Positions 3,110-64,000 of a stretch of 64,000 bases of DNA are shown one piece after another. This DNA comes from Ephemerocybe angulata (taxonomy: Eukaryota; Basidiomycota; Agaricomycetes; Agaricales; Psathyrellaceae): the NCBI GenBank assembly GCA_013368325.1, contig JAACJK010000066.1:304533-368532 (forward strand). The letters are read 5' to 3'. Each line of letters starts with the position of its first letter. The stretch's first letter is position 1. A program made the translations under genes and the position numbers. The notes under the pieces were generated by a model. The model did no database searches, was not told the DNA's origin, and worked only from the letters and a program-made list of their open reading frames with translations.

Positions 3110-4160
3110 TCACTTCGCACCGGTGGCTTTCTGCAGCGCCTTGAGGACCGTGTCGACCTCCGCGATGTACTTGTCAGTCAATTTTTGGAACTAAAGGGGA
3201 AGGGGAGAGCGTAAAAGGAAGGGGGAGGGGAAGGGGAAGGGGAAGGCAGATGGTAATCAGCCCAAGCCAGGAACAAGTCGGAGAAAACGGTACCTCTTCG
3301 AGCTCGATCGAGTGCTTCTCAAACTTTCCGCGCTTGAGGCTGGCGGAATGCTGTTTTCTGACTTGGGTCCTGATCTCTTCGGCCTTCTTCTTTGCAGCGG
3401 TGTACAGCGCGTGGCGGGACTCCACTGTAGGTCTAAAGGGAGGGGGGGAGGGGGTCAACAACACAGCGAACGAACGAACATGCAAAGGTGGGTTGGGGAG
3501 GAACGCACTTGGGTATGGAAACCTTGATGGTCTGCGCGTCGTGCTTGTGCGGGACGACGCCCGGGATCCCACAGGTGTGCAGTGCCGATTCGACATGTTT
3601 CATGTTCTACTAGAGCAAACGGCGCATAGGTCAGTACGAGTGGCAACCATAACCCTAACCATCCCTCCCCCCTCCTCCTCAATGTGAACCGAACCCGCAC
3701 TACTCACCTGCTCCTCAAACAGCGTAATCAAGAAAGTCGACCCCTCCCTTACGCCCACCGTCGCCAGCGCCTCCAGCGCATACTCCGTCTCGGGGTCGCT
3801 CGGCAGCCTCACGCGCACGGGGCTCAGAATGGCAGGCGTCACCCGCCCGCTGGCGCGCGTCTCGTAGCCCGCGCACTCCTTCCGGAACCACTCCACGGCG
3901 GTCTTCATCACGCCCTCGGCCTTCTGGTACTCCTTCAGCGCGTCGGGATCCTGGATCTTCATCTTGGAGCCCGGGACGATGGTGGCCGTGGACTTGGTTT
4001 TGCCCTTGGTTGCGTAGAACCGCTGGGATGGGGCTGCCACTGCCATCGTGGCTGGCCGGGGAGCGAGGGCGGGCCGGGAGAAGAGGGGGAGTGTGCGCGG
4101 GGCGCTGCTGGCTCGTGAAGAGGAGAGGCAGCGCAGAGAGAGGGCCCGGGAGAGAGACAT
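3110..4160 (-). CDS. RRF1: mitochondrial ribosome recycling factor
   Basis: Ribosome recycling factor, which with mitochondrial EF-G2 splits ribosomes after translation termination. Four exons on the minus strand: 4160-3708, 3606-3509, 3432-3294 and 3190-3110, all joining in frame. The first about 45 residues are rich in Ser, Arg and Ala with no acidic residues, a typical mitochondrial presequence, followed by a Pro/Gln/Arg-Phe-Tyr-Ala segment. The RRF domain shows the family landmarks GRVTPAILSPVRVRLPS, then TIKVSIPKPTVESRHALYTA, then helices of KKKAEEIRTQVRKQH and FQKLTDKYIAEVDTVLKALQ at the C terminus. The domain is two helical arms with a beta domain between, and its length is normal. The start is the first ATG and places the targeting peptide correctly. 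The last intron carries a long GA-rich tract. Confidence 0.93.
3214..3246. repeat. polypurine tract inside an RRF intron
   Basis: A 33-nt run of only A and G with a GGGGAA period sits in the last intron of the recycling-factor gene. On the transcribed strand it is a long pyrimidine tract. Confidence 0.8.
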
Positions 4161-50126: not shown

Positions 50127-50612
50127 ATGGAACCTAACTGCCCTCCCTTCACTATCCCCTCAGCACGAATAAACGCAGCGCGCACCATCCCCGTTCCACA
50201 CTTCGACTTCCTGATCCATGACACAGGGTTTGTCGTTGCAGCCATTCTCCGAAGTCTCTTTGTCGAGAACAGACACTACAAGATCACTTTCTACATTCTA
50301 CTCCTCATCGAGCGCGGCTTTGCGTCAGAACAGGACAGCAGAACTGTCGCACTCATTGTCCGGAAAATTTGCGATAACTTACTGCACCAAAACGCGGCCT
50401 GCCGGACCACTGCCAGTGGCTTTAGACCAAATGGAATGACTGGGACGTTGAGTCCGCTACACTGGTTCCAGCACACATTCTCGACGATGTTGATTCGAAA
50501 ACTCGAGACCATACGCCAGGTGAAGGTATGTATACCTGTGGGAAGCCGGCCGATGCTGCGCACGGCAATGTGTCCGAGGCATTTTGGCTCCATTGTGCGG
50601 CTTCTTAATTGA
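50127..50612 (+). CDS. MIF4G-like protein, copy 4, probably truncated
   Basis: Single frame of about 160 codons from ATG 50127; TATAAGTA lies near 50070. Contains FLIHDTGFVVAAILRSLF and the family block ITFYILLLIERGFASEQDSR followed by TVALIVRKICDNLL, then FSTMLIRKLETIRQVK. At the position of the conserved phase-0 intron there is a good donor (GTATGT at 50526), but I could not find a second exon equivalent to the NVTIFLADLY half. Either the protein ends in the unspliced frame at 50612 or the gene has lost its 3' half. Confidence 0.5.
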   Translation: MEPNCPPFTIPSARINAARTIPVPHFDFLIHDTGFVVAAILRSLFVENRHYKITFYILLLIERGFASEQDSRTVALIVRKICDNLLHQNAACRTTASGFRPNGMTGTLSPLHWFQHTFSTMLIRKLETIRQVKVCIPVGSRPMLRTAMCPRHFGSIVRLLN

Positions 50613-50860: not shown

Positions 50861-51342
50861 TTACAGCATCATATCATACGCGCGCAAACATACCATTCTA
50901 TGGAGTTCCTCCGCTTCCAGGGAGTATCCACGTGCCCTCAGGTGCCTGGCAACGCAGTGGCGCGCTTTGTCTCCTAGTCCATACGCTACTTCAGCGTTGT
51001 AGAGGCGCATGCAGTTCATCATTCGGTGTGCCAGTTGCTGACACACGCCCGTGTGAATGATCCCATCACCCAATCCAGCTTCAGCGCCGGCTACGGCGAG
51101 GAGGTGGGCCCAGTGTCGAAGTTCGACGGAGTCTTGGATCGGGCCCACATGCGTCCTCAACTTCTGGGCCTCCTCCAACCGCTTCGTCAACGCCCTAAAC
51201 ATTTTTGTGGTGTAGTCGAACAGCAACTCAGGATCCATTCGGGCAAAGTATTCAGTTGGTGTCTAGATGGTTGTTAGGATCAAAGGAGCGGGTACCCGTA
51301 AGACGAACTCACCATGGTTTCCTCGTTCTGGGCGGTATTCAT
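50861..51342 (-). CDS. small TPR-like helical protein 1
   Basis: Two exons: 51342-51313 (MNTAQNEETM) and about 51264-50861 (TPTEYFARMDPELLFDYTTK onward), about 145 residues. The sequence is all helical with TPR-like spacing: HLLAVAGAEAGLGDGIIHTG, QQLAHRMMNCMRLYNAEVAY and CVARHLRARGYSLEAEELHR. No signal peptide. A TATAAAG lies upstream on the same strand near 51440. It resembles in pattern the gene at 51837-52605, and both begin M-[ND]-T-A-Q and carry an intron after a short first exon, so they are likely tandem paralogues. No enzyme motif; probably a protein-binding scaffold. Confidence 0.6.
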
Positions 51343-51836: not shown

Positions 51837-52605
51837 TCAGATACTGTGTCGTCGCTCACGAGGTGTGCCCACTGACGCCTCATCTTCGCTACCCTCGCTG
51901 GTGGCACCTAGGCGAACAGCACGGCCCTCAGTGGCGCCGACATCGTGCTCGCCGCGGCACTGAGGCAAGTCGTTGAGGCAGACGTTGTATTCGAGTTCAG
52001 GCCAGCCAAAGTCGTCGTCTAATTGCTCACGTCAGGGTCTATTAGTGTCTTTCCCTTGTCGAAGGTTACTCACCTATTTCTCGGACCTCTTCGTAAAGGT
52101 CTTCTGCCATCGCGTGCTCGTTCCGATCGACCAGGGTCTGCGCCAGCATCTGCACTGTATCTCTCGAGAACTCGAGGTGCATGCAGACGGTGTCGAATGC
52201 CGACCATGCTTTCTCGTATGCGACCTGAGTCCGATGGACCTCCTCATTCCTCCACCCCCCTATTGCGAGCGTATCCGTCCAGTCCAATGCCCGGGAGAGG
52301 GCCGCACGCCACGACCTTCTCATGACATACTTTCTTCGCCTATCGTCGCACTTCCGCCTTGCTTTCCTTTTCCTAGTACACAGTATTTTGTGCATGTCAA
52401 TGGCGAGCGCGACGGCGTCTTCAGAGGGGAGACTTTCGATGAACTCGATCGTAGTCTAGAAGAGACCGTCATATTATTTAAGTAGCGGTAGTATAAAGGT
52501 TGTTGGGAGAAGGCAGCTTACTTCGAAGGGTATTGTCTCCCCGGTGGCAGCCATGCGAAGCAGCTGTTCGATTGCTGGGATGAGGGGATACTGTGCTGTG
52601 TCCAT
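51837..52605 (-). CDS. small TPR-like helical protein 2
   Basis: Three exons in frame, about 220 residues: the first begins MDTAQYPLIPAIEQLLRMAA, the second TTIEFIESLPSEDAVALAID with a very basic stretch (TRKRKARRKCDDRRRK) and the TPR-like helices YEKAWSAFDTVCMHLEFSRD and QMLAQTLVDRNEHAMAEDLY, and the third an acidic tail from DDDFGWPELEYNVCLNDL to RERRHSI. Upstream on the minus strand ATATAAATTC near 52668 fits a TATA box. Likely a tandem relative of 50861-51342. No known family name. Confidence 0.6.
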
Positions 52606-53960: not shown

Positions 53961-54715
53961 ATGGACCTCATCGTACACGAGGTGGGCGACGTAGACGTGG
54001 AGTTGCTCATCGCCGACGCGAAAGCCATATCTAGGGTATGCTCTATCGCACGGCTTACAGTCATAGAACTAATGCCACGTCCATCGTAACATCGCAGGGT
54101 CAACGGTGGCCGATGACGAAGTGTGCCTTCTTTGGTTCTAGTTGTTCTAAGCCTTTCATAGTCCCAGCGGCTACCCAGTGCACATCCATTGGAAAGGGCC
54201 GACCTATGGACATATTCTTCAGATCGTATGTCAACGCGGCGATCCCCCGCTCGTCGTTGGTATACAACCTGGACGACTACTTCATAGAGGTCAACAGATA
54301 CCCTGCGCACAGCTTGGTGGAGGGCCCATGGCGGTACGCCATATTCACGTCTCAAAACGTACGTGATTCGGTTACAAGCATGAACTTGAAGAGTATTCTA
54401 AAATCATCTAATATCCGCGCCTTGTAGTGCAACGACGAAGTGAACAAGTTGGTGCGACGCCTGTACAAAGGTCAAGACCTGCACGTCCATGGCTGTGTGC
54501 TAGTCGCCAAGGCTGACCACATGGGCATCGTCCATCCGGTACACGAATCCGATTTGTCGCAGATTGAGACCATGCTTGTCGAGTAGGTCTCCGCCTTCCA
54601 GTTCATGAGATCTGTGCCCTCTAATCGATTACGATCCAGGAACCTAATCACACAGTATCAGGTGGTGACAGTCAACCCTGACATGCGATCCACCGAAGCG
54701 ATCAACGTATTTTGA
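53961..54715 (+). CDS. uncharacterised Agaricomycete protein, module gene 1 (plus strand)
   Basis: Exons 53961-54035, 54098-54358, 54428-54582 and 54640-54715, phases 0, 0, 2; about 188 residues. Visible: MDLIVHEVGDVDVELLIADA, MTKCAFFGSSCSKPFIVPAA, DIFFRSYVNAAIPRSSLVYN, WRYAIFTSQN, then DLHVHGCVLVAKADHMGIVH. The last block (short basic region, then a GxxLVxK beta pair, then an acidic helix) recurs in the gene at 57809-58573, which has the same intron phases in its second half. No catalytic motif recognised. It stands 234 bp upstream of the nucleotidyltransferase-like gene on the same strand. The start may be further upstream, since the frame is open before the ATG. Confidence 0.6.
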
Positions 54716-54949
54716 GGAGCGGAATTTTGATGTATCCCCGCGCGTATACCCCACCACCATCTCTTCGCGTGGACGCGGGACGTTGGGGAGACGATTGGGG
54801 CTTAAAGGTCCGACTAGTAATGTCGAAGGTCCCCGCACCTCACATTCCTCCCCTTCGCGCGATATATCCCTCTCTTACTCTCTCTCACTGTCGTTACATG
54901 CCCCAATACCATTCCTTTCACTACCCCCGATAACTTAGTCCCAAGCATA

Positions 54950-56143
54950 ATGTCCTCTCCCCTTTCAAACTATTCGTACCCCTCCACGCCTCCCGCCAGT
55001 CCCAGTTCGATTCGAAATACGCCATGGGCACCGTCGCGCACCCCTACACGAACATCTGCACGCCTGGCCATCAAGAACACTCGGTTTCCGTCGTTCCCTC
55101 GGTTGGACGAACCCGTTACGCTCTTCGCGCCGAAGATAAAGGACCGCGCAGGTCCACGCCGATTCAACAGCGCCGAAGCCTTCTACTATTGTACGGAGCT
55201 CATGGGTATGGCACTGTCCTACTGCGACTGGCACACCATCCAAAGCATGTCACGCACTAATCGACACGGGAGAGGGTTGGCTCAAACCGCGACCGAGATC
55301 ATCCTGAAACACATATTATGCCCTTTCATCCTCCTCCACCAGTTCTACGACTTCTTGGAAAAGATGAACGATACCGGCGCCGGCATCATGGGGTCGGTTG
55401 CCAGAAGGATGCTCGCTACCAACTCGATGATGATGCAACACGCCATAAAGGTCAAGGACTTTCGGTACCTCAGGTCCAACGACCTGAACATCGTGGTCCC
55501 CAAAGGGAGCTTGGACGCGATGGTGGAGTGGTTTACAGCACACAGTTACGACGCCTGGGACACCGAGGTGGTATCAAAGCCGTACGTCGGATCGGTACGC
55601 AGGATGGTCTCCGCGACCCGTCAGCCGCAGAACGGAGTTCCGGTGGGCATCTCGATTAATGTTATGTGGGAAGCGCGTTGACCCTCATCATGCCAACAGC
55701 GCGCGAGAATTACGATTAGCGAAAGCCTAGGGAATGTGATGCAGGTCATCCTTGCATCCAACATGACCTGCCAAACCAACTTGGTGACGTCCACACGCGT
55801 CTACGCAGTCTACCCCACGCTGGTGACAGACCAGCACGCCCTCAAGACGGACATAACGAGTCTCATCTCTCCGCGTCGACCGAGACCCCCTTACCTCCTT
55901 CGCACCTCGAACTTCAGGTGGACCGGACCCTGCGGATTCCACTGCCCATCTCTACCCAGGAAAACAGTCGGGGACAAAGGGATAGCTTCTTTCCTATGGA
56001 ACACGAGGTATCCTATCCCGGAGTCTAGGTACAGCGACACAGACTCCCTCTTGGCCCAATCCATCTTGCAATGGCGCTTTGCTAAACGCTGTGGAAATCC
56101 CAAGTGCAAGCGGTTCATGCCCCCGCGGTCATTAGTAATGTAA
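54950..56143 (+). CDS. nucleotidyltransferase-fold-like protein, module gene 2 (plus strand)
   Basis: Two exons, 54950-55660 and 55700-56143, phase 0, about 384 residues. After a Pro/Ser-rich N terminus, helices lead to GAGIMGSVARRMLATN, then FRYLRSNDLNIVVPKGSLDA and MVEWFTAHSYDAWD. This resembles the GS...DxD core of nucleotidyltransferase-fold proteins, with DLNI where a catalytic DLDI would be. Then RITISESLGNVMQVILASNM and the region FRWTGPCGFHCPSLPRKT and RCGNPKCKRF, the last two with possible metal-binding Cys/His. The paralogue at 56810-57764 shares all these blocks. The family appears abundant in Agaricomycetes in my recollection, with no assigned function. The intron donor is a non-ideal GTTATG. 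Confidence 0.62.
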
Positions 56144-56809
56144 GCACGGTTATTGGGACCTCCAGATACCTCTGAGCGTCGACTTTCTCCCCACGCTGAG
56201 GCTTTCGCTTCCCCTTCGAAGATTCCCCAACTCTCTTTAGCGGCGCTTATTCCTTATTCCATTACTCTAACGTTCGTGTTTGTCGTTTCGTCCAAGTGAG
56301 GCCCCAACATTCTCAACCTGGAACGGTTACGTATATACCCCTTCAGTACCCTTTACCTCTTGGACAGTTCATCGCCCATCTCCCTCCGTTTCTACCCCAA
56401 TCCCGGTCTATTTGCGTCATGCGTCCCTCCTCGCGCTTGTATACCCCGACCGGTCGTCATATGTCATATCATCCCTTATACTCTACCTATACCTCCCACC
56501 CTCTTTCATCCTTCGAGTCCATCTTCTACAAATACGACACGCTGTAATAGGTTCCAACTATCGTCACTCATTTGCATGCCTATGTCTCAGCCCGTCGGGG
56601 GGAAGCAATTAAGTCGTCATACCGCGGTACACGGACTGGTGGCAGTAAGACCCTTCCACTATTGGACGGTGGACACCCTCGTAGCCGCACGCTGCAATAC
56701 TTTTGCGAACTTAACACCACATCATACCGCGGCGGTGAGACGGCGGATACTCAAGGTCGAACGAGATGGGTATCGATTAGATAACTAATCAGCACTACGT
56801 ACAATAGAG
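56144..56809. other. convergent 3' flanks between the two modules
   Basis: Between the stops of the paralogues on opposite strands. Pyrimidine-rich short frames near 56280-56790, no splice-consistent gene. Confidence 0.5.
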
Positions 56810-57764
56810 TCAAGGGCGTAGATAGCGGCTGCGATCCTCGAACAACACCTTATTGGGACAGTGGTCATTATGGCACCTGCTATGTACCCTCCATATAAGA
56901 GGCTCGCTGCGCAAGAAGGATCGTCCATCGTCCTCCACCGATCCCCATGATGTAAACTGTCCATCATCCATGGACCAGGAGTATATAGCGGCGCCATCGT
57001 CGTCGGGTGTTTTCCTCCAAGTTGCAGGGCATTGTAATCCACAGGGACTGGTCCAGTGGGAGTTGTTGGGGATGACGGAGAACGTAAGATCTTCCGCATT
57101 GGAACTGGCGGGCGCTCCTTCGACGACTAAGCTTTCGTTGGCAAGAGTTGCACGAGGAAGCATGCACACCACGCTGTTATGGGTAATAGCGCACATTTGA
57201 GCTGAGTACGGGGTGCAGAGAACAACGCTGAGTGCTCTGGTCGCGCTGACGGACAGGAGGATGGTCCTGGTCTGAGAAATGTGTCACGGGGTACCGAGAA
57301 CGGTCGAGATGTAGGACACTGACCTCGCATGGGGTTCGTCGATCGAACCTCTCTATAACGTCGACGCTCGAACTACGTCGTTCGGAGGGAGGAAGAGCTC
57401 TCGACCGATATCCCTGCGAGCGCAGGAACGAGCGCATGACTCCTTCCATGCCGAACGACGTTGTAATATTGAGGTTGGTAGCCTTCCGTCTGGGCTGAGT
57501 TGGCCCGTTCAGAAGGAGGACTTCTCGGACGACTGAGCCTACTATCGCTCCCTCAGACGCACGGAGGTACTCGATGAAGTCATCGAACGCGGTCCGCTCG
57601 ATATACGGCTCGATGGCGTCCTTGATGCGTTGACGAAGCTCGTACTGGGCGACATTGGGTGCCGCGTTGGGGAAGAAGGAAGCTTGTACTAGGCGATCGA
57701 TGGGCAAGAATCGAGCGACTTCGGCAACGATATCGGATGGGAGGTCTCGGGCGGTAGGGCTCAT
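56810..57764 (-). CDS. nucleotidyltransferase-fold-like protein, module gene 2 (minus strand)
   Basis: Two exons, 57764-57324 and 57271-56810, phase 0, about 300 residues. The N terminus DLPSDIVAEVARFLPIDRLV is F-box-like. Then EGAIVGSVVREVLLLNGP and KATNLNITTSFGMEGVMRSF match the corresponding GS and DLNI blocks of 54950-56143, again with Asn in place of the second Asp. The second exon TRTILLSVSATRALSVVLCT, HWTSPCGLQCPATWRKTPDD and RVHSRCHNDHCPNKVLF parallels the paralogue's second exon, and the intron falls at the same place. It is 44 bp downstream of the stop of 57809-58573, so the two are very tightly linked. Confidence 0.65.
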
Positions 57765-57808
57765 GATTCGTAGATAGGGATTGGGATGAGGATGTAATAC
57801 AAACAATA

Positions 57809-58573
57809 CTACCAAGCCTGCCATCCCCAATACGACTTCGGTTTAGGGCTGACTAACGGATTTACGACTAAAGGATGGTTGTATTTGTTGTCGTCCTCAA
57901 ATAGGCTACAAATGGCAGTGAGCCCCCTCTGGTAATGAGCTGTGAAATAGTGATCATGCGCACCTGTAGATGAGAAGCTCCGCCACCCCTATGTCCTTTT
58001 CCACCATGTCGCAGACTTCGCCCATACGATCTGTCTTCACTACGACTATGTTACCCCACACTGTACGGACGCCGTCCTCGCACTTGTAGGACTCGTACAG
58101 ATCGTTCACCGGCAGGTCTATAGGTCCACGACCCTATCGCGGAACCAAAGAGAGGTGAGAAGCTGAAGGACCATCTAGAGCTGTGGAGCAGGAGCGCTTA
58201 CCGCCTTAGTGGCCGTAAAAATAGCCCAGTTATTACGCTGAAGGCGAGGGGCACCATGAGGATACCTCCTGATGCAAGACCCCGCATGCTCGAGGTTCCT
58301 GGGTGCTGCAGGCGCTGCATAGGTGGGCGGGTACAGGTATTGCTCGACGTAGAGATCAATGCTCCTTGGCGCTGCCTCGTACCCAGGGTGCACAGCAATT
58401 GACACGAGGTGGGCCTGAGTACATCGGGCACCGACGACACACCCCTTTACTGTAGAAAACAGCCCTTCCTAATGGCACTATGAGTACTATGAACCGAGAA
58501 AGCGATGATAACACACCTGGTGTGCGGTATCGAATCTGGACGAGATCGCCAGAACATCGCCGTCGGAGAACAT
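57809..58573 (-). CDS. uncharacterised Agaricomycete protein, module gene 1 (minus strand)
   Basis: Exons 58573-58517, 58468-58202, 58133-57964 and 57905-57809, phases 0, 0, 2; about 196 residues. Visible: MFSDGDVLAISSRFDTAHQ, GCVVGARCTQAHLVSIAVHP, IDLYVEQYLYPPTYAAPAAP, NNWAIFTATKA, then VRTVWGNIVVVKTDRMGEVC and a C terminus ending YWGWQAW. It parallels the plus-strand gene at 53961-54715 in block order and intron phases (compare WRYAIFTSQN and VHGCVLVAKADHMG). No known function. The start is uncertain; the frame is open for some codons upstream. Confidence 0.58.
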
Positions 58574-59668
58574 GAGTGGCCCTGAGCAGTCGACCGATCT
58601 ATACCAAGATGAGTTCGAGGGTTGTTTTCGCTTTTCTTTTGTCTTCCACCGTGAAGGCTAAGTCCGAATGGATCGTGTCACGATGCTAGGAGACATGATT
58701 TCAAGTTGATGCTGACCGGAACATGAAGCAGACACCGTCGCATGGAATGGGGTGCGGGTGCTGTCGCGCTCTGATTGGAAAACCACCTGAGTCCGAATGC
58801 GACATGGGCAGCATACCACTGCGCAGAGCGATACTCCCTGTCATATCCACCTACTCGACGTCGCTCCAAACGCGCCCACGGCGGTCCGAGCGGATCTACA
58901 GGACGTTACCGGGAGACGCACCTGGCAGGGTGGGGCGGCATGGTTAGACTGGAAAAGGTGGAGCGTCAGGACGGGGGACCATGCGAGAGCCTGCGAGAGC
59001 GTACCGAATAAGCGCCCGAGCTTACCCGTATCCTACGCATAAGCGACCTCCAGATGGTGCAGGCCAGGAGGTTAACTTCGCAAGCATGGTGTTGCATGGT
59101 CCCCTTCGCGTAGCCTGACGTGGCGGACGAGCGTCTCTGCTGATTGATAGGTCAGTAAACGGTACCCATATAGACGATGAGGCCAGATCTTGCCGACGCA
59201 GAGAACTTCGCTTACCGATTACTGGCGGTGTGCTCAGTACTACCAGAGCAAGGGATAGTGCCGACACGGAGCACGATAAGATGATGTCAAGGAGTTGCAA
59301 TCACAAGACAATGCCAAACAGGTGTTTGCCGGCGCGTCAATCAAAGGACGATGCCAAACAGGGGGTGGGCGCGGCAACCACCGGGGCCGTCGACCACACT
59401 ACCCTTTAATCCGTCCCTATGTCATTCATCGCACGGAGCGCCGTCGGTAGCGACTTATGGGGGAGACAGATGGGCAAACCGGTGGATAGATACGGAGGGA
59501 CAGCCGCTGTGGGATGGTCCAGGTCCCCTGATTCAGAGGAGAGATGAGGAAGTTCATCGTACGTTCTGAGTTATCTGCAATGATAAGCGAGCGCCTAACA
59601 GACATACTGCGAAGATGGCAGGCGGCGCCCACAGTTGGAGAGCGAAGATGGTCTGTACACATATCCGG
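58574..59668. other. intergenic between gene cluster and Helitron
   Basis: About 1.1 kb. Two similar stretches with GATGCCAAACAGG / AATGCCAAACAGG lie near 59310 and 59350. The Helitron 3' end (CTRR after a short hairpin, on the minus strand) should lie here but I could not place it. No gene seen. Confidence 0.4.
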
Positions 59669-60553
59669 TTAGTCTCTAATATATACAGCCAAAGATGCCA
59701 CATTTCCCCCCATTACAGAGAGAGAGCGGAGCTGACTGGTAGTCCTTAAAGTAAACTCGTACTCCAGCTTACCCTCATTGACCATACCGTCGTAGGCGTA
59801 CACCCGCATATCATGGTCCACAACTCTCGAAGCGAAGTGATTTCCACCCCAGTACACCACGCCCGCTAACCTGTACCTGCAATCAGACAGTTCCATCAAG
59901 CTATTAACAATTAAGCGCTTCTTCACTGTTGCGAGCGGTAGGTTGGGCAACTCGACGCACATGAGGGATGGATACTCGTGTTCAATCATGAGGTCTCCCG
60001 CACACTCATCACACTGACCTGACACACGCTCTAAGGAGGCCAAATACCTTGCCACTGACTCGTCTCTAGTAAGGGTTGTCCTCATTACGGTATACCGTCC
60101 GATCCCCTCGAACATGAACCCGGGGATCCGCCGATGACAACCGAAACAGAGGCGGTGGGTCGTGTTGGAAGGATCGGTCGGTGGAGGCACACCGTTAACA
60201 GCTCGGGTGAGAGAGTAGAGGTCAGCACCAAGTTGCCCCTTCGGAAACCCTACAGGGTCCATCTCCCACAAGATGGTCCGAAGGCGCAGTCTGCAACTGT
60301 CTAGAGGCAGGTCATCAGCGTGCGCTGCAGCGAAAAGGTCGAAGGCATACGGGAGGATCTGACTGTCACCACAAATCGACCTAAGGAAAGTGCTATCCCG
60401 GCCATACCAAATGTACCGCAAAATGGTGAAGTACGAGTCGTACGCACAGCTCCAGTTCACATCATCCCATTTCCAGCTATGTACCCAGCCCGGTTCGTGT
60501 GCGATAGGTTGAACCACGCGAGCGGAAGCACCTGGTACAACTAACCTCTGCAC
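59669..60553 (-). CDS. Helitron C-terminal ubiquitin-protease-like domain
   Basis: Intact frame of 294 codons continuing the Helitron coding order downstream of the helicase. VNWSCAYDSYFTILRYIW fits a catalytic-cysteine box of a C19-like (ubiquitin-specific) protease and VVYWGGNHFASRVVDHDMRV the histidine box; in between, CFGCHRR and CDECAGD give two CxxC pairs of the kind seen in the zinc ribbon of USPs. The ATG at 60553 is probably not a natural start, because the sequence upstream continues the helicase C terminus after one frameshift. Such a domain fused to Helitron helicases is, to my recollection, found in Agaricomycete elements. Protease activity is inferred from motifs. Confidence 0.6.
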   Translation of the reverse strand: MQRLVVPGASARVVQPIAHEPGWVHSWKWDDVNWSCAYDSYFTILRYIWYGRDSTFLRSICGDSQILPYAFDLFAAAHADDLPLDSCRLRLRTILWEMDPVGFPKGQLGADLYSLTRAVNGVPPPTDPSNTTHRLCFGCHRRIPGFMFEGIGRYTVMRTTLTRDESVARYLASLERVSGQCDECAGDLMIEHEYPSLMCVELPNLPLATVKKRLIVNSLMELSDCRYRLAGVVYWGGNHFASRVVDHDMRVYAYDGMVNEGKLEYEFTLRTTSQLRSLSVMGGNVASLAVYIRD

Positions 60554-63500
60554 CTTAGAAGGTCGAACATCCTCGCACAGACTCTGTTCCGCCTTTCGTT
60601 TACTCGATTGTAAGCCGATCGTTTCTGCGACATGAACATTTTTCGGAACTTCGACTGACGTTCCTCACACAGACAGATCGCCTGCCTTCCTCTTTCGAGA
60701 AGCGATATCAGCTTTTGTCGCGGCCTGCATTCTCTGCCAAGCTTTGTACGAAAGTATAGTGGAGGCACGAAGACGCTGCACCACAGCAGGGGGGAGAGTG
60801 CCCTCGACCTCCCTTTCGTGATCTCGTCCAGTGTATCTATGACCCTATACTCCTGACGCAGGTAGCCAGATATGCCCCCGGTGAGTTTAGATTCTTTAAA
60901 GTCTCTCAATATATGGTGGATGCTGCGCTTGTGCCCCTCGAAAGAGCGGTGTCATAGCCTGATGGTTACGAGAGCGCAAAAGATCGACGACGTTCACCTC
61001 GCGTGTTTTACCCTGCGAGGCATAGTCGGTCATAGCGAAATTTAGGAGCACAGGTACCTGCTGGCGGGAGATGTGGATGCCGGCGTCGTGGGGAGAACGG
61101 CGCGAAGCGCTGTGGACATTCGGGTGAGTGGAACGACATTCTCTTCTAGATGTGGGAGCTTTATGTTGTCCTTCGGATTAACTAGTTTAACAAACAGTAC
61201 TTCGAGGGCGAAGCGGCCGGGAAAACCTGGGATCTCCTGGCTAGTCAACCTTGACCACCGCTTCCTGCCCCTTGGTAATACCAAGCTCCGTCGCGTCATT
61301 ATTACGGATCATAACAGGCATACCAATACATAATGGTAGACATGCGGGTATGTGTTCGCTGGTATAGGGAGGGGATCTCCACAAGGCCTCTTGCACCGCC
61401 GGAGTAAGTCTTATCTTTGGTTCGTTAGTGTCTCTCGCGGGCTTTGCCTAACCCGCCCCTTTCCTCTTCCTGCTATCTACAGAGTAGAACATGTGAGCGG
61501 GCGGTTATTCTCGCGTGCAAATCGAATGGCATTCATAGCGTTGATTTGATCTTTATGCGTATTCCAGGCGGTGATTACTGAAACATCGCACCACATGGGA
61601 TCACCGAGATTGAGAGCAGGGTTATTGCTCGGATTCGAGACCGAAGGAACTCTAAATCCGCTTCGGTACAGTCTTTATATCGCATGTGCTCTAAACAGGT
61701 TCGCAGTGAGTCCTCAGCTGCATCTGAAGTGTTCGTCTGCCTCATGTTCTGGCGGAGCACGACGACCGTGACAAATAGATTCCACAACAAGAGACCAGCG
61801 TGTTTTCCTGGTCTGTCTGACTCTGCCTAGGTCGCTGTACCTTCGATACTTCTCCGCTGTAAAGCGATAGACCTCTAGCGGAGGGAGTTGTGCGAAGTCT
61901 CCAGCTACGATGATGCTGAGGCCGCCAAAAGCATGTCTTCTAGGGTGTGACATCTTTAGGCGTTATCTATAAGATAGAGGTCCTGGCAGGACACCATAGA
62001 ATTTCGTCCATGAAATGTAGTCGACGCCTCTCATTCGGAGGCGAGCTCGTCAAGAGCTCGACCCCGCGAGGAGCATATGCACGTCGGTCGCCTGTAGCGA
62101 CACCAGATACGAGTGATAGGTAGAGCCGCGAACGACGGATGCCGCGGCACCGGTTGGGGCTGTCACAGCCATACGGTTCGCCTCAGATCGGATGGTGAAC
62201 CAGTACCTGAGGGAGTCTATCACCCGCGTCTTGCCCGTCCCCCCCATTCCACCTATGTACATCAACAATGGGGCGGGGGACACAGATATAGAGTGTCTTG
62301 CAACGATGAGAACGCTCTCCGCTGTTCCTCATTGAGCGAGTACTTGGTGACTGCTTCTGTTAGTTGTGCCTGCACGTCAGCGTCCGCGAGTTCGAACTCC
62401 GACAAGAAATAGGCGCCGGGCAAAACACGAGCATCGTTTACGACCTTGACGCCATCGTACGCAGGGTCCTTCGAACCCACATCGTCGTCGTGAGCCAGTA
62501 TGTGCCCTTTCGCATTCACCAACCTCGAATCTAACACCTCTTTTCGCGCCGCTGAAACCACAGATTTCCACTTATTCGGTCCCATCATGCGGTCTGGCGC
62601 GAAGGAATCCTCTGTCGAGCGGGTCTGGGAGGACACGCTGTCGACCGTCCACCCGGCTGACTGCATGACAGCCTCTACCTCTTTCATTTGATCTAACTTT
62701 TTCTGGGACCACACACCAATACCGCTCCTCCAACAGAACCGCATCGAGGACGTCTGCCACGTCGGCGTCATCAGGACACTCCTCCTCTTCGTCCTCAGTA
62801 TCTAAATCAGCATCCTTATCGTACTGAGCGGCGACCTGGAGCTTCAGCTGTGCGTGGTAGTCATCACGAGCATCGTAGCATTCATGTCGGATGTTCATGT
62901 TGCTGATTATCTGAAGGTGCCTATCTGAAAACGAATACCTATCGAACGCTGCATCCCAACTTTCGCATGACGACTTCAAATCGAGCGGAGACCTCCAGGG
63001 TACGAAGAGAGTGAGTATAGTGCAACAATAGTACTCGCGATCGTCTCCATCGGGTCTCGGTAGATAAGCCCCGAGGAAGTTGGGGACGACAGTCTGCATC
63101 CTTCGGACATCGTAAGCAATGCGATGGGACTTGAATAGAGGATGCCCTCTCTGATAGCATAAGAGCGTCTTCGACGGATTTTTAACACCCACCACTGACT
63201 TACGGACGCTACACTGGATCCAGTCATACAAACATACCGCGGTAAGCTCTTCGGGTCTCATCATGTAGTCGTCGACACTTGACCGACTCAAAATCCTTCC
63301 GTAGGTCCGTTTGATCGCCACAGAGTCCTCTTCGTCCTCGTCGCCGCCGTCGTCGAAGCAGGGCTCAACGTCTTCCATTTCATGGTCAATGTCGTCTCCC
63401 ACCGGAACGGGGAAGGAGTTGTCCACGGCGCCGTCGTTGGAGCGAGGATTTTCCGCTCTGGAGGCTTCCTCTGCGGCGGCCCACTCGTTCTGTACATACA

Positions 63501-64000
63501 CCACGTAAGTTCGCCAGTATAACTTCTCGAAGGAGTGACTGGAGTAATGATCCGGGTGACCAAGCAGATACATAGCGGCCATAGGACCGCCTATCTCGAT
63601 TTTCGATGTCAGAGAATTTGCCATTTTCATTATAAGTTGCCGGGCTGCATCGTTCTCGGATTTACTTTCTACCCACACGTCTGGATTTCGTTCGAAGACA
63701 TCGTATATGGAGGAAAATTTGGTAGGTCTTCAGACCCATCTTACAGATATAGTCTGCAATATACCCAGCGGTCGCTTTAACAGCTGTACCTGAGGACAGC
63801 GAAGAACAGTCGGTGTTACATCCGAAACAGTACACCATGACATCGTTGACAGTGTTGATGTTGGGCTCATTCTTCATGAGGTGAATATGTCCCTCTTTGT
63901 CTACGACGGTGACCTTGGAGATCTTCCTGGGAAACCTCGCGGTGCACACTTTCTCCTTATTCAGACAGCCTTTCCCAACGATGAGCTGCTTGTCGACCCC
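60541..64000 (-). pseudogene. Helitron helicase, frameshifted
   Basis: The helicase-encoding stretch can be followed only by changing frame. Breaks are seen near 63710 (KTYQIF to SIYDVFERNPDVW), 62715 (LLEERY to GIGVWSQKKLDQM), 62275 (before SPAPLLMYIGGMGG), 61965-62050 (around the region preceding SHPRRHAFGG), 61790 (KTRWSLV to WNLFVTVVVLRQNM), 61580 (to CDVSVITAWNTHKD) and 60560 (before the protease-like domain). Walker A (GGTGKT) and the DFAQLPP motif survive. An active element is not possible with this copy as read. Confidence 0.85.

What the first reader, a model, noticed from the sequence alone, without database searches (positions are those of the whole stretch)
53961..58573. Same two-gene module twice, facing inward on opposite strands
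On the plus strand an uncharacterised gene (53961-54715) is followed by a nucleotidyltransferase-fold-like gene (54950-56143). On the minus strand a relative of the first (58573-57809) is followed after only 44 bp by a relative of the second (57764-56810). Block order and intron phases agree within each pair. Conserved pairing suggests the two products work together, and the tail-to-tail arrangement points to an inverted duplication of the whole module. It sits beside a Helitron, in a region rich in lineage-specific families. This is the best candidate here for an undescribed two-component system.
Basis: partly seen in the sequence, partly recalled or inferred. Interest (0 to 1): 0.8.

Follow-up and report, generated by a model that had tools for sequence, protein, structure and literature searches.

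The report
Twin gene pairs carried by Helitron
Four neighbouring mushroom genes, two related pairs facing each other, are not ordinary host genes but a long-conserved cassette inside a very large, recently active jumping element, and one of the proteins appears to be a worn-down nucleotide-transferring enzyme of unknown purpose.

Summary
Two gene pairs, A>B and A'>B', lie tail to tail with matching intron phases; A/A' and B/B' are anciently related. The context differs from the one proposed: the block is not beside a Helitron but inside one. From a sharp edge at window 50534 to the contig end, everything belongs to an element of about 24.7 kb with Helitron2-type ends and a Rep-PIF1 helicase gene. 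At least 12 near-identical copies lie in this Ephemerocybe angulata genome. Eight copies compared over 5.2 kb showed no substitution, so amplification was recent. The four diverged versions read here (43-79% protein identity between them) carry the same A>B> <B'<A' block under purifying selection. In the genome, A' has B' beside it at 27 of 30 A' loci. B has a predicted nucleotidyltransferase fold; its acidic motif is partly lost, and wholly lost in B'. Best reading: conserved accessory genes that serve the transposon. What they do at the molecular level is inferred only. Helitrons with accessory genes are known; I found no description of this cassette in the papers searched.

The parts
50534..50594 (-). 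3' terminus of the element (ends ...CCCACAGG followed by T on the minus strand), with a short hairpin GCCG..CGGC
   Evidence: Of the 11 other copies listed at 100% identity, 7 start exactly here, 2 one base before, C215 19 bases before, and C92 45 bases after at its contig end; the end sequence recurs in 3 diverged elements whose 20-base flanks differ; fold
50573..50590 (.). Asymmetric terminal inverted repeat: reverse complement of the element's 5' terminus TCCGAGGCATTTTGGCTC, which lies about 11.2 kb beyond the window end in other copies
   Evidence: 5' end seen in L033, L037, L038
50861..51262 (-). Additional cargo ORF C1 (unnamed)
   Evidence: Protein-level similarity to two diverged elements, L035 and L036; no Pfam family
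52066..52455 (-). Additional cargo ORF C2, by eye related to C1; sub-threshold TPR-like match
   Evidence: Protein-level similarity to L034; TPR_10 E 0.012, below the curated cut-off
53961..54715 (+). Gene A: exons 53961-54035, 54098-54358, 54428-54582, 54640-54715; phases 0,0,2
   Evidence: homologues in 3 diverged elements; 20 loci in the own genome
54950..56143 (+). Gene B: exons 54950-55660, 55700-56143; predicted nucleotidyltransferase fold; motif GS..DLN..E; C-terminal CGxxCP and CxNxxC
56810..57764 (-). Gene B': exons 57764-57324, 57271-56810; homologue of B; motif GS..NLN..S (acidic residues lost)
57809..58573 (-). Gene A': exons 58573-58517, 58468-58202, 58133-57964, 57905-57809; homologue of A; phases 0,0,2
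59669..60664 (-). ORF downstream of RepHel with a Cys-box and a His-box resembling a papain-like thiol protease (read by eye)
   Evidence: 392 aa in copy C93; no Pfam, NCBIfam or PDB sequence match
60541..64000 (-). 3' part of the Rep-PIF1 helicase gene (left border approximate), cut by the contig end; the window copy carries gaps relative to copy C93, which has Helitron_like_N, DUF6570 and PIF1 domains

Best explanation
The block A>B> <B'<A' is a conserved accessory-gene cassette of a giant Helitron2-type (rolling-circle) transposon of about 24.7 kb that has recently amplified in the mushroom Ephemerocybe angulata. Shown: it lies inside the element; the same block is present in all four diverged versions read; it goes back to one old duplication of a two-gene module; and it is under purifying selection. 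Inferred: because it is kept by the element and not by one locus, its products serve the element (transposition or evasion of host silencing). Most likely B and B' act as nucleotidyltransferase-fold proteins that bind nucleic acid or a nucleotide. B is at most weakly catalytic and B' is a pseudo-enzyme. Each would work with its small neighbour A or A', perhaps as a mixed A-B-B'-A' complex. Probability of the cassette reading is about 0.9; of the pseudo-enzyme plus partner mechanism about 0.35.
Confidence: 0.86

Rival explanations
1. Passive capture: the element picked up a host gene cluster by chance and carries it without use.
For: Pleurotus HELPO1 Helitrons carry captured genes of unknown function (PMC4289320, section 7). 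Eight A'-B' pairs lie apart from any detected same-strand Helitron N-terminal domain, which could be the host source.
Against: The full block is kept in four diverged element versions with low dN/dS; passive cargo should decay. Of the 21 B loci tallied, 19 adjoin a Helitron gene and the other two (C126, one C217 end) are cut by contig ends; only the lone C140 stretch stands apart.
Confidence: 0.06
2. Addiction module: B or B' is a nucleotidyltransferase-type toxin and A or A' its antidote, so that losing the element harms the host.
Against: The acidic motif is incomplete in B and absent in B'; the MenT3 match is weaker than that to tRNA enzymes; no toxicity data.
Confidence: 0.1
3. Subtelomeric repeat with a telomere-linked helicase; the module marks chromosome ends.
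For: The 12 near-identical A-B copies lie within about 21 kb of a contig end.
Against: No run of three or more perfect TTAGGG units in loci L001-L036; in the window one imperfect double unit at 3647, also seen in 21 of 100 shuffles. C226 and C215 carry the element at both ends in the SAME orientation, as expected if assembly breaks in a long identical repeat and not if both ends are telomeres. The versions on C11, C43, C105 and C128 lie inside contigs.
Confidence: 0.03
4. A local inverted duplication of a host two-gene locus, independent of the neighbouring Helitron.
For: The mirrored arrangement is real.
Against: Copies share the outer border and the Helitron gene; A/A' and B/B' diverged far more than the element versions did.
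Confidence: 0.02

Closest known systems
Helitron2 elements of Fusarium oxysporum (FoHeli; PMC5148889, passages seen)
   Same: Asymmetric terminal inverted repeats with the 3' copy about 20-51 bp inside the end, Rep-Hel protein, signs of recent activity
   Different: FoHelis are about 5-11 kb; none of the passages seen mentions such a cassette; here about 24.7 kb with the further ORFs A, B, B', A', C1, C2
Pleurotus ostreatus HELPO1 Helitrons with cap genes (PMC4289320, section 7 and passages seen)
   Same: Basidiomycete Helitrons carrying lineage-specific genes of unknown function beside RepHel; capB is even shared with a few other basidiomycetes, beside RepHel in the same orientation, so conserved Helitron cargo has a precedent
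   Different: The named cap genes differ between the subfamilies; here one ordered, mirrored four-gene block is kept across diverged versions. The cap sequences were not compared here
Animal Helitrons with VTD or OTU deubiquitinase domains (PMC9741609, passages seen)
   Same: Accessory functions that may protect proteins needed for transposition
   Different: Those are domains within the Helitron reading frame; A, B, A', B' are separate genes, and B has another predicted fold
Nucleotidyltransferase-fold proteins (tRNA CCA-adding enzymes, Pol beta family)
   Same: Predicted fold of B residues about 140-300
   Different: Catalytic acids partly or wholly replaced; about 10% identity; extra C-terminal Cys-containing region

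Membership tests
Helitron (RepHel rolling-circle transposon) | Rep (Helitron_like_N) plus PIF1 helicase in one gene | tested here: met
   C93 copy: PF14214 E 6.7e-36 and PF05970 E 2.2e-23 in two adjoining pieces; one search gives one open frame of 2006 codons there. The window copy is cut by the contig end
Helitron2 variant | Asymmetric terminal inverted repeat | tested here: met
   18-bp 5' end found inverted 39 bp inside the 3' end, as described for Helitron2 in PMC5148889
Helitron2 variant | Hairpins at the termini | tested here: inconclusive
   A GCCG..CGGC hairpin recurs in 3 of 3 3' ends folded, but folding is no better than shuffles in 2 of these 3 (z -0.17, 0.46, -2.28); one 5' end folded has z -1.79
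Helitron (all) | No target-site duplication, defined dinucleotide target | tested here: inconclusive
   Flanking T in 3 of 3 right ends and 6 of 6 left ends read; no empty site compared
Helentron | C-terminal AP-type endonuclease domain | tested here: inconclusive
   No such Pfam match in the three RepHel-region pieces scanned; an absence at this sensitivity only
Nucleotidyltransferase fold (B) | Fold match to solved members | tested here: met
Active nucleotidyltransferase (B, B') | Acidic triad Dx[DE]...[DE] (motif recalled, not from a call) | tested here: not met
   B: D-x-N...E in 6 of 6 B proteins; B': N-x-N...S in 3 of 3; the columns were picked by pattern, not from a structure
F-box protein (B) | F-box domain | tested here: inconclusive
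   No Pfam F-box match in 9 of 9 proteins scanned up to E 10; two of the four best viral structure matches are named F-box proteins
Addiction (toxin-antitoxin) module | One product toxic, the other neutralising | not testable with these tools
   needs expression experiments

The most novel reading that the evidence does not exclude
A transposon-borne protein machine: a duplicated, mirror-image pair of (small partner + nucleotidyltransferase-like protein) genes. One enzyme copy keeps part of its active site and the other has become a pseudo-enzyme; together they form a mixed complex that a giant Helitron needs for rolling-circle replication or for disarming host silencing. That would be a kind of Helitron accessory system not described before.
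Probability: 0.25. Interest if true: 0.75.

Novelty: new variant of a known kind. Interest (0 to 1): 0.52.

Why it matters
Genes carried by fungal Helitrons are mostly described as captures of unknown function. Here an ordered, mirrored four-gene block has been kept for as long as the element versions read have diverged, under purifying selection, in an element that amplified recently. That makes the question of what a Helitron needs beyond Rep and helicase testable in a mushroom. It also warns that clusters of 'lineage-specific families' in fungal genomes can be transposon cargo.

Tried and rejected
Telomere reading: TTAGGG searched in the window and in the loci then held, nothing convincing, and the orientation at contig ends argues against it. 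Viral relatives by sequence: 51 pattern stretches in viral contigs, none a relative. Family libraries: no significant Pfam or NCBIfam family for the A, B, A', B' proteins or exons scanned; no PDB sequence relative. Structure of A': failed. Whether the eight lone A'-B' pairs lie in decayed Helitrons: not settled, as the PIF1 search did not complete. Literature: no paper held with Helitron, F-box, nucleotidyltransferase and fungi together; other searches; only openly licensed PubMed Central papers are held. Synonymous dating of A/A' and B/B' was not attempted: 23-28% identity is beyond saturation.

Rows dropped: tblastn pieces under 38% identity were left out to avoid mixing B with B'. Stop codons inside the kept pieces (0-4 per gene and element) were skipped; they may be introns or decay and were not told apart. 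The tally uses one typed piece per locus: second pieces of a locus, hits of the B query on B' loci and of the B' query on B loci, and the lone B-like stretch on C140 were left out. Its Helitron list held 21 of the 106 matches; on the contigs of the lone pairs the full list shows nothing nearer.
Full report
What was claimed and what is there. Gene models confirm this: A (53961-54715) and B (54950-56143) on the plus strand, A' (58573-57809) and B' (57764-56810) on the minus strand, 44 bp apart. Intron phases worked out from exon lengths are 0, 0, 2 for A and A' and 0 for B and B'. Profile comparisons show that A and A' are homologous (96.1%, E 3e-9), and so are B and B' (99.5%, E 1.6e-22), while A' against B' gives 0.4%.

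The organism. Five protein records found with A' and B are named Ephemerocybe angulata (Psathyrellaceae) and lie on contigs of 319493, 36369, 23274, 225795 and 832317 bases, the lengths of C154, C39, C228, C43 and C185 of the window's genome. The window is the last 64 kb of contig C214.

It is a repeat. The DNA of A-B is found at 100% identity in 12 places (the one on C126 cut at its contig start), plus a 99% fragment on C91. That of B'-A' is found in full in 10 places at 100% and on C91 at 99%, in part at a C217 end, and truncated on C39 and C228. The stretch before A shows a sharp common edge at window 50534: of the 11 other copies at 100% identity, 7 start exactly there, 2 one base before, C215 19 bases before, and C92 45 bases after, at its contig end. 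The stretch after A' is repeated to the contig end at 98-100%. The 11.2 kb shared with C93 shows 0 mismatches and 36 gap columns, 34 of them at 59-63 kb near the contig end, and 7 comparisons over 5.18 kb show 0 mismatches and 1-3 gaps. So the copies are very young, and the broken frames of the helicase gene in the window look like assembly gaps more than decay; this is an inference.

It is a Helitron2-type element. On the minus strand the element begins TCCGAGGCATTTTGGCTC, seen in three right ends (L033, L037, L038), and the inverse of this sequence lies 39 bp from the other end, whose last bases are CCCACAGG followed by T. The same end occurs in three diverged elements with different flanks. 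This is the asymmetric terminal inverted repeat that characterises Helitron2 in the Fusarium paper (PMC5148889, passages). The helicase gene in copy C93 carries Helitron_like_N (E 6.7e-36), DUF6570 (E 6.9e-36) and PIF1 (E 2.2e-23). Summing the window part (13,467 bp) and the part in C226 (11,224 bp) gives about 24.7 kb; the two parts come from different copies.

It is probably not a telomere repeat. No run of three perfect TTAGGG units was found in the loci held; the window has one imperfect double unit at 3647, also met in 21 of 100 shuffles. C226 and C215 carry the element at both contig ends in the same orientation, as expected when assemblies break in a long identical repeat.

The cassette is conserved. 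Three diverged elements (L034 on C43, L035 on C42, L036 on C11) carry A, B, B' and A' in the same order and strands. Protein identities between the four versions, the window's included, are 43-79%. Trees split B from B' and A from A' with 100/100 support; L035 and L036 are sisters in both halves of the B tree, and the A tree is unresolved inside its halves. L035 against L036 gives dN/dS 0.10 (A), 0.14 (B), 0.20 (A'), 0.11 (B') at dS 1.3-2.1; comparisons with the window are at or near saturation at synonymous sites, with dN 0.24-0.53. Two further ORFs on the left side also show protein-level similarity in these elements.

From, tallied: A' has B' within 3 kb downstream on the same strand at 27 of 30 loci; the misses are two truncated copies and C37, where the pair is about 7 kb apart. 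A has B at 18 of 20; the misses are C41 (A without B) and C104 (11 kb apart). B has A at 18 of 21 and faces B' at 20 of 21, with a further lone B-like stretch on C140 not entered. B' has B at 20 of 28. Of 20 loci with A' near B, 11 have a Helitron N-terminal hit within 30 kb, always on the strand of A'. The other 9 lie at contig ends; 8 of these have the helicase gene's other end beside them, and one C217 end is cut before it. Against a pure cargo reading, eight A'-B' pairs (C146, C32, C115, C125, C232, C47, C37, C214:117-119 kb) have no A or B, and none has a same-strand Helitron N-terminal hit within 30 kb. Nor does each Helitron carry the cassette: one search lists 106 N-terminal matches (some are pieces of one gene) against some 20 cassettes. 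Proteins of another tag series (DFP72DRAFT, taken here as another E. angulata assembly) show B-like and B'-like members with neighbouring locus tags twice. A Coprinellus aureogranulatus protein joins an A-like and a B-like part in this order; each part falls with A or B in the trees. Counts include allelic or duplicated contigs.

Mechanism. Shown: element cargo, ancient module duplication, purifying selection, recent amplification. Inferred: the products work for the element. My first choice is a nucleotidyltransferase-fold binder (B, with B' as pseudo-enzyme) acting with its small neighbour, in transposition or counter-silencing. Parallels for counter-silencing or protective cargo exist: TET/JBP dioxygenases in Helitrons (PMC12730594, passages) and deubiquitinases in animal Helitrons (PMC9741609, passages). 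Cargo genes in Pleurotus Helitrons are known, one of them (capB) shared with other basidiomycetes beside RepHel (PMC4289320, section 7); they were not compared by sequence.

Novelty. Helitrons with accessory genes are known, and even conserved cargo has a precedent; this cassette was not found in the searches, of which only titles, abstract starts and the named passages were seen. I rate it a new variant of a known kind.

Noticed in passing
window 57956-57970; L032, L033: Two truncated copies (C39, C228) begin 7 bases apart inside A', at ACCTGTAG next to a splice donor, a sequence resembling the element's own end ACCTGTGGG; possibly a premature 3' end.
   Followed up: partly
window 59669-60664 (-): ORF after the helicase gene with NWSCAYDSY and GNHFASRVVD boxes, like a papain-type thiol protease by eye; no library match.
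   Followed up: partly
window 50861-51262 and 52066-52455 (-): Two ORFs, related by eye, one with a sub-threshold TPR match, similar to ORFs in diverged elements: further cargo.
   Followed up: partly
window 59000-63999: The window copy differs from C93 by gaps only, no substitution, clustered near the contig end: frame breaks in the helicase gene there are probably assembly errors.
   Followed up: partly
G000 C146, C32, C115, C125, C232, C47, C37, C214:117-119 kb: Eight A'-B' pairs without A and B and without a same-strand Helitron N-terminal hit within 30 kb: source genes, relics or another element.
   Followed up: partly
whole genome G000: 106 Helitron_like_N matches, many in open frames over 2000 codons: a Helitron-rich genome.
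   Followed up: no
P0008, P0012: Public gene models look wrong: P0008 lacks a segment of B that P0009 and P0010 keep; P0012 seems to fuse A and B of Coprinellus into one protein.
   Followed up: no
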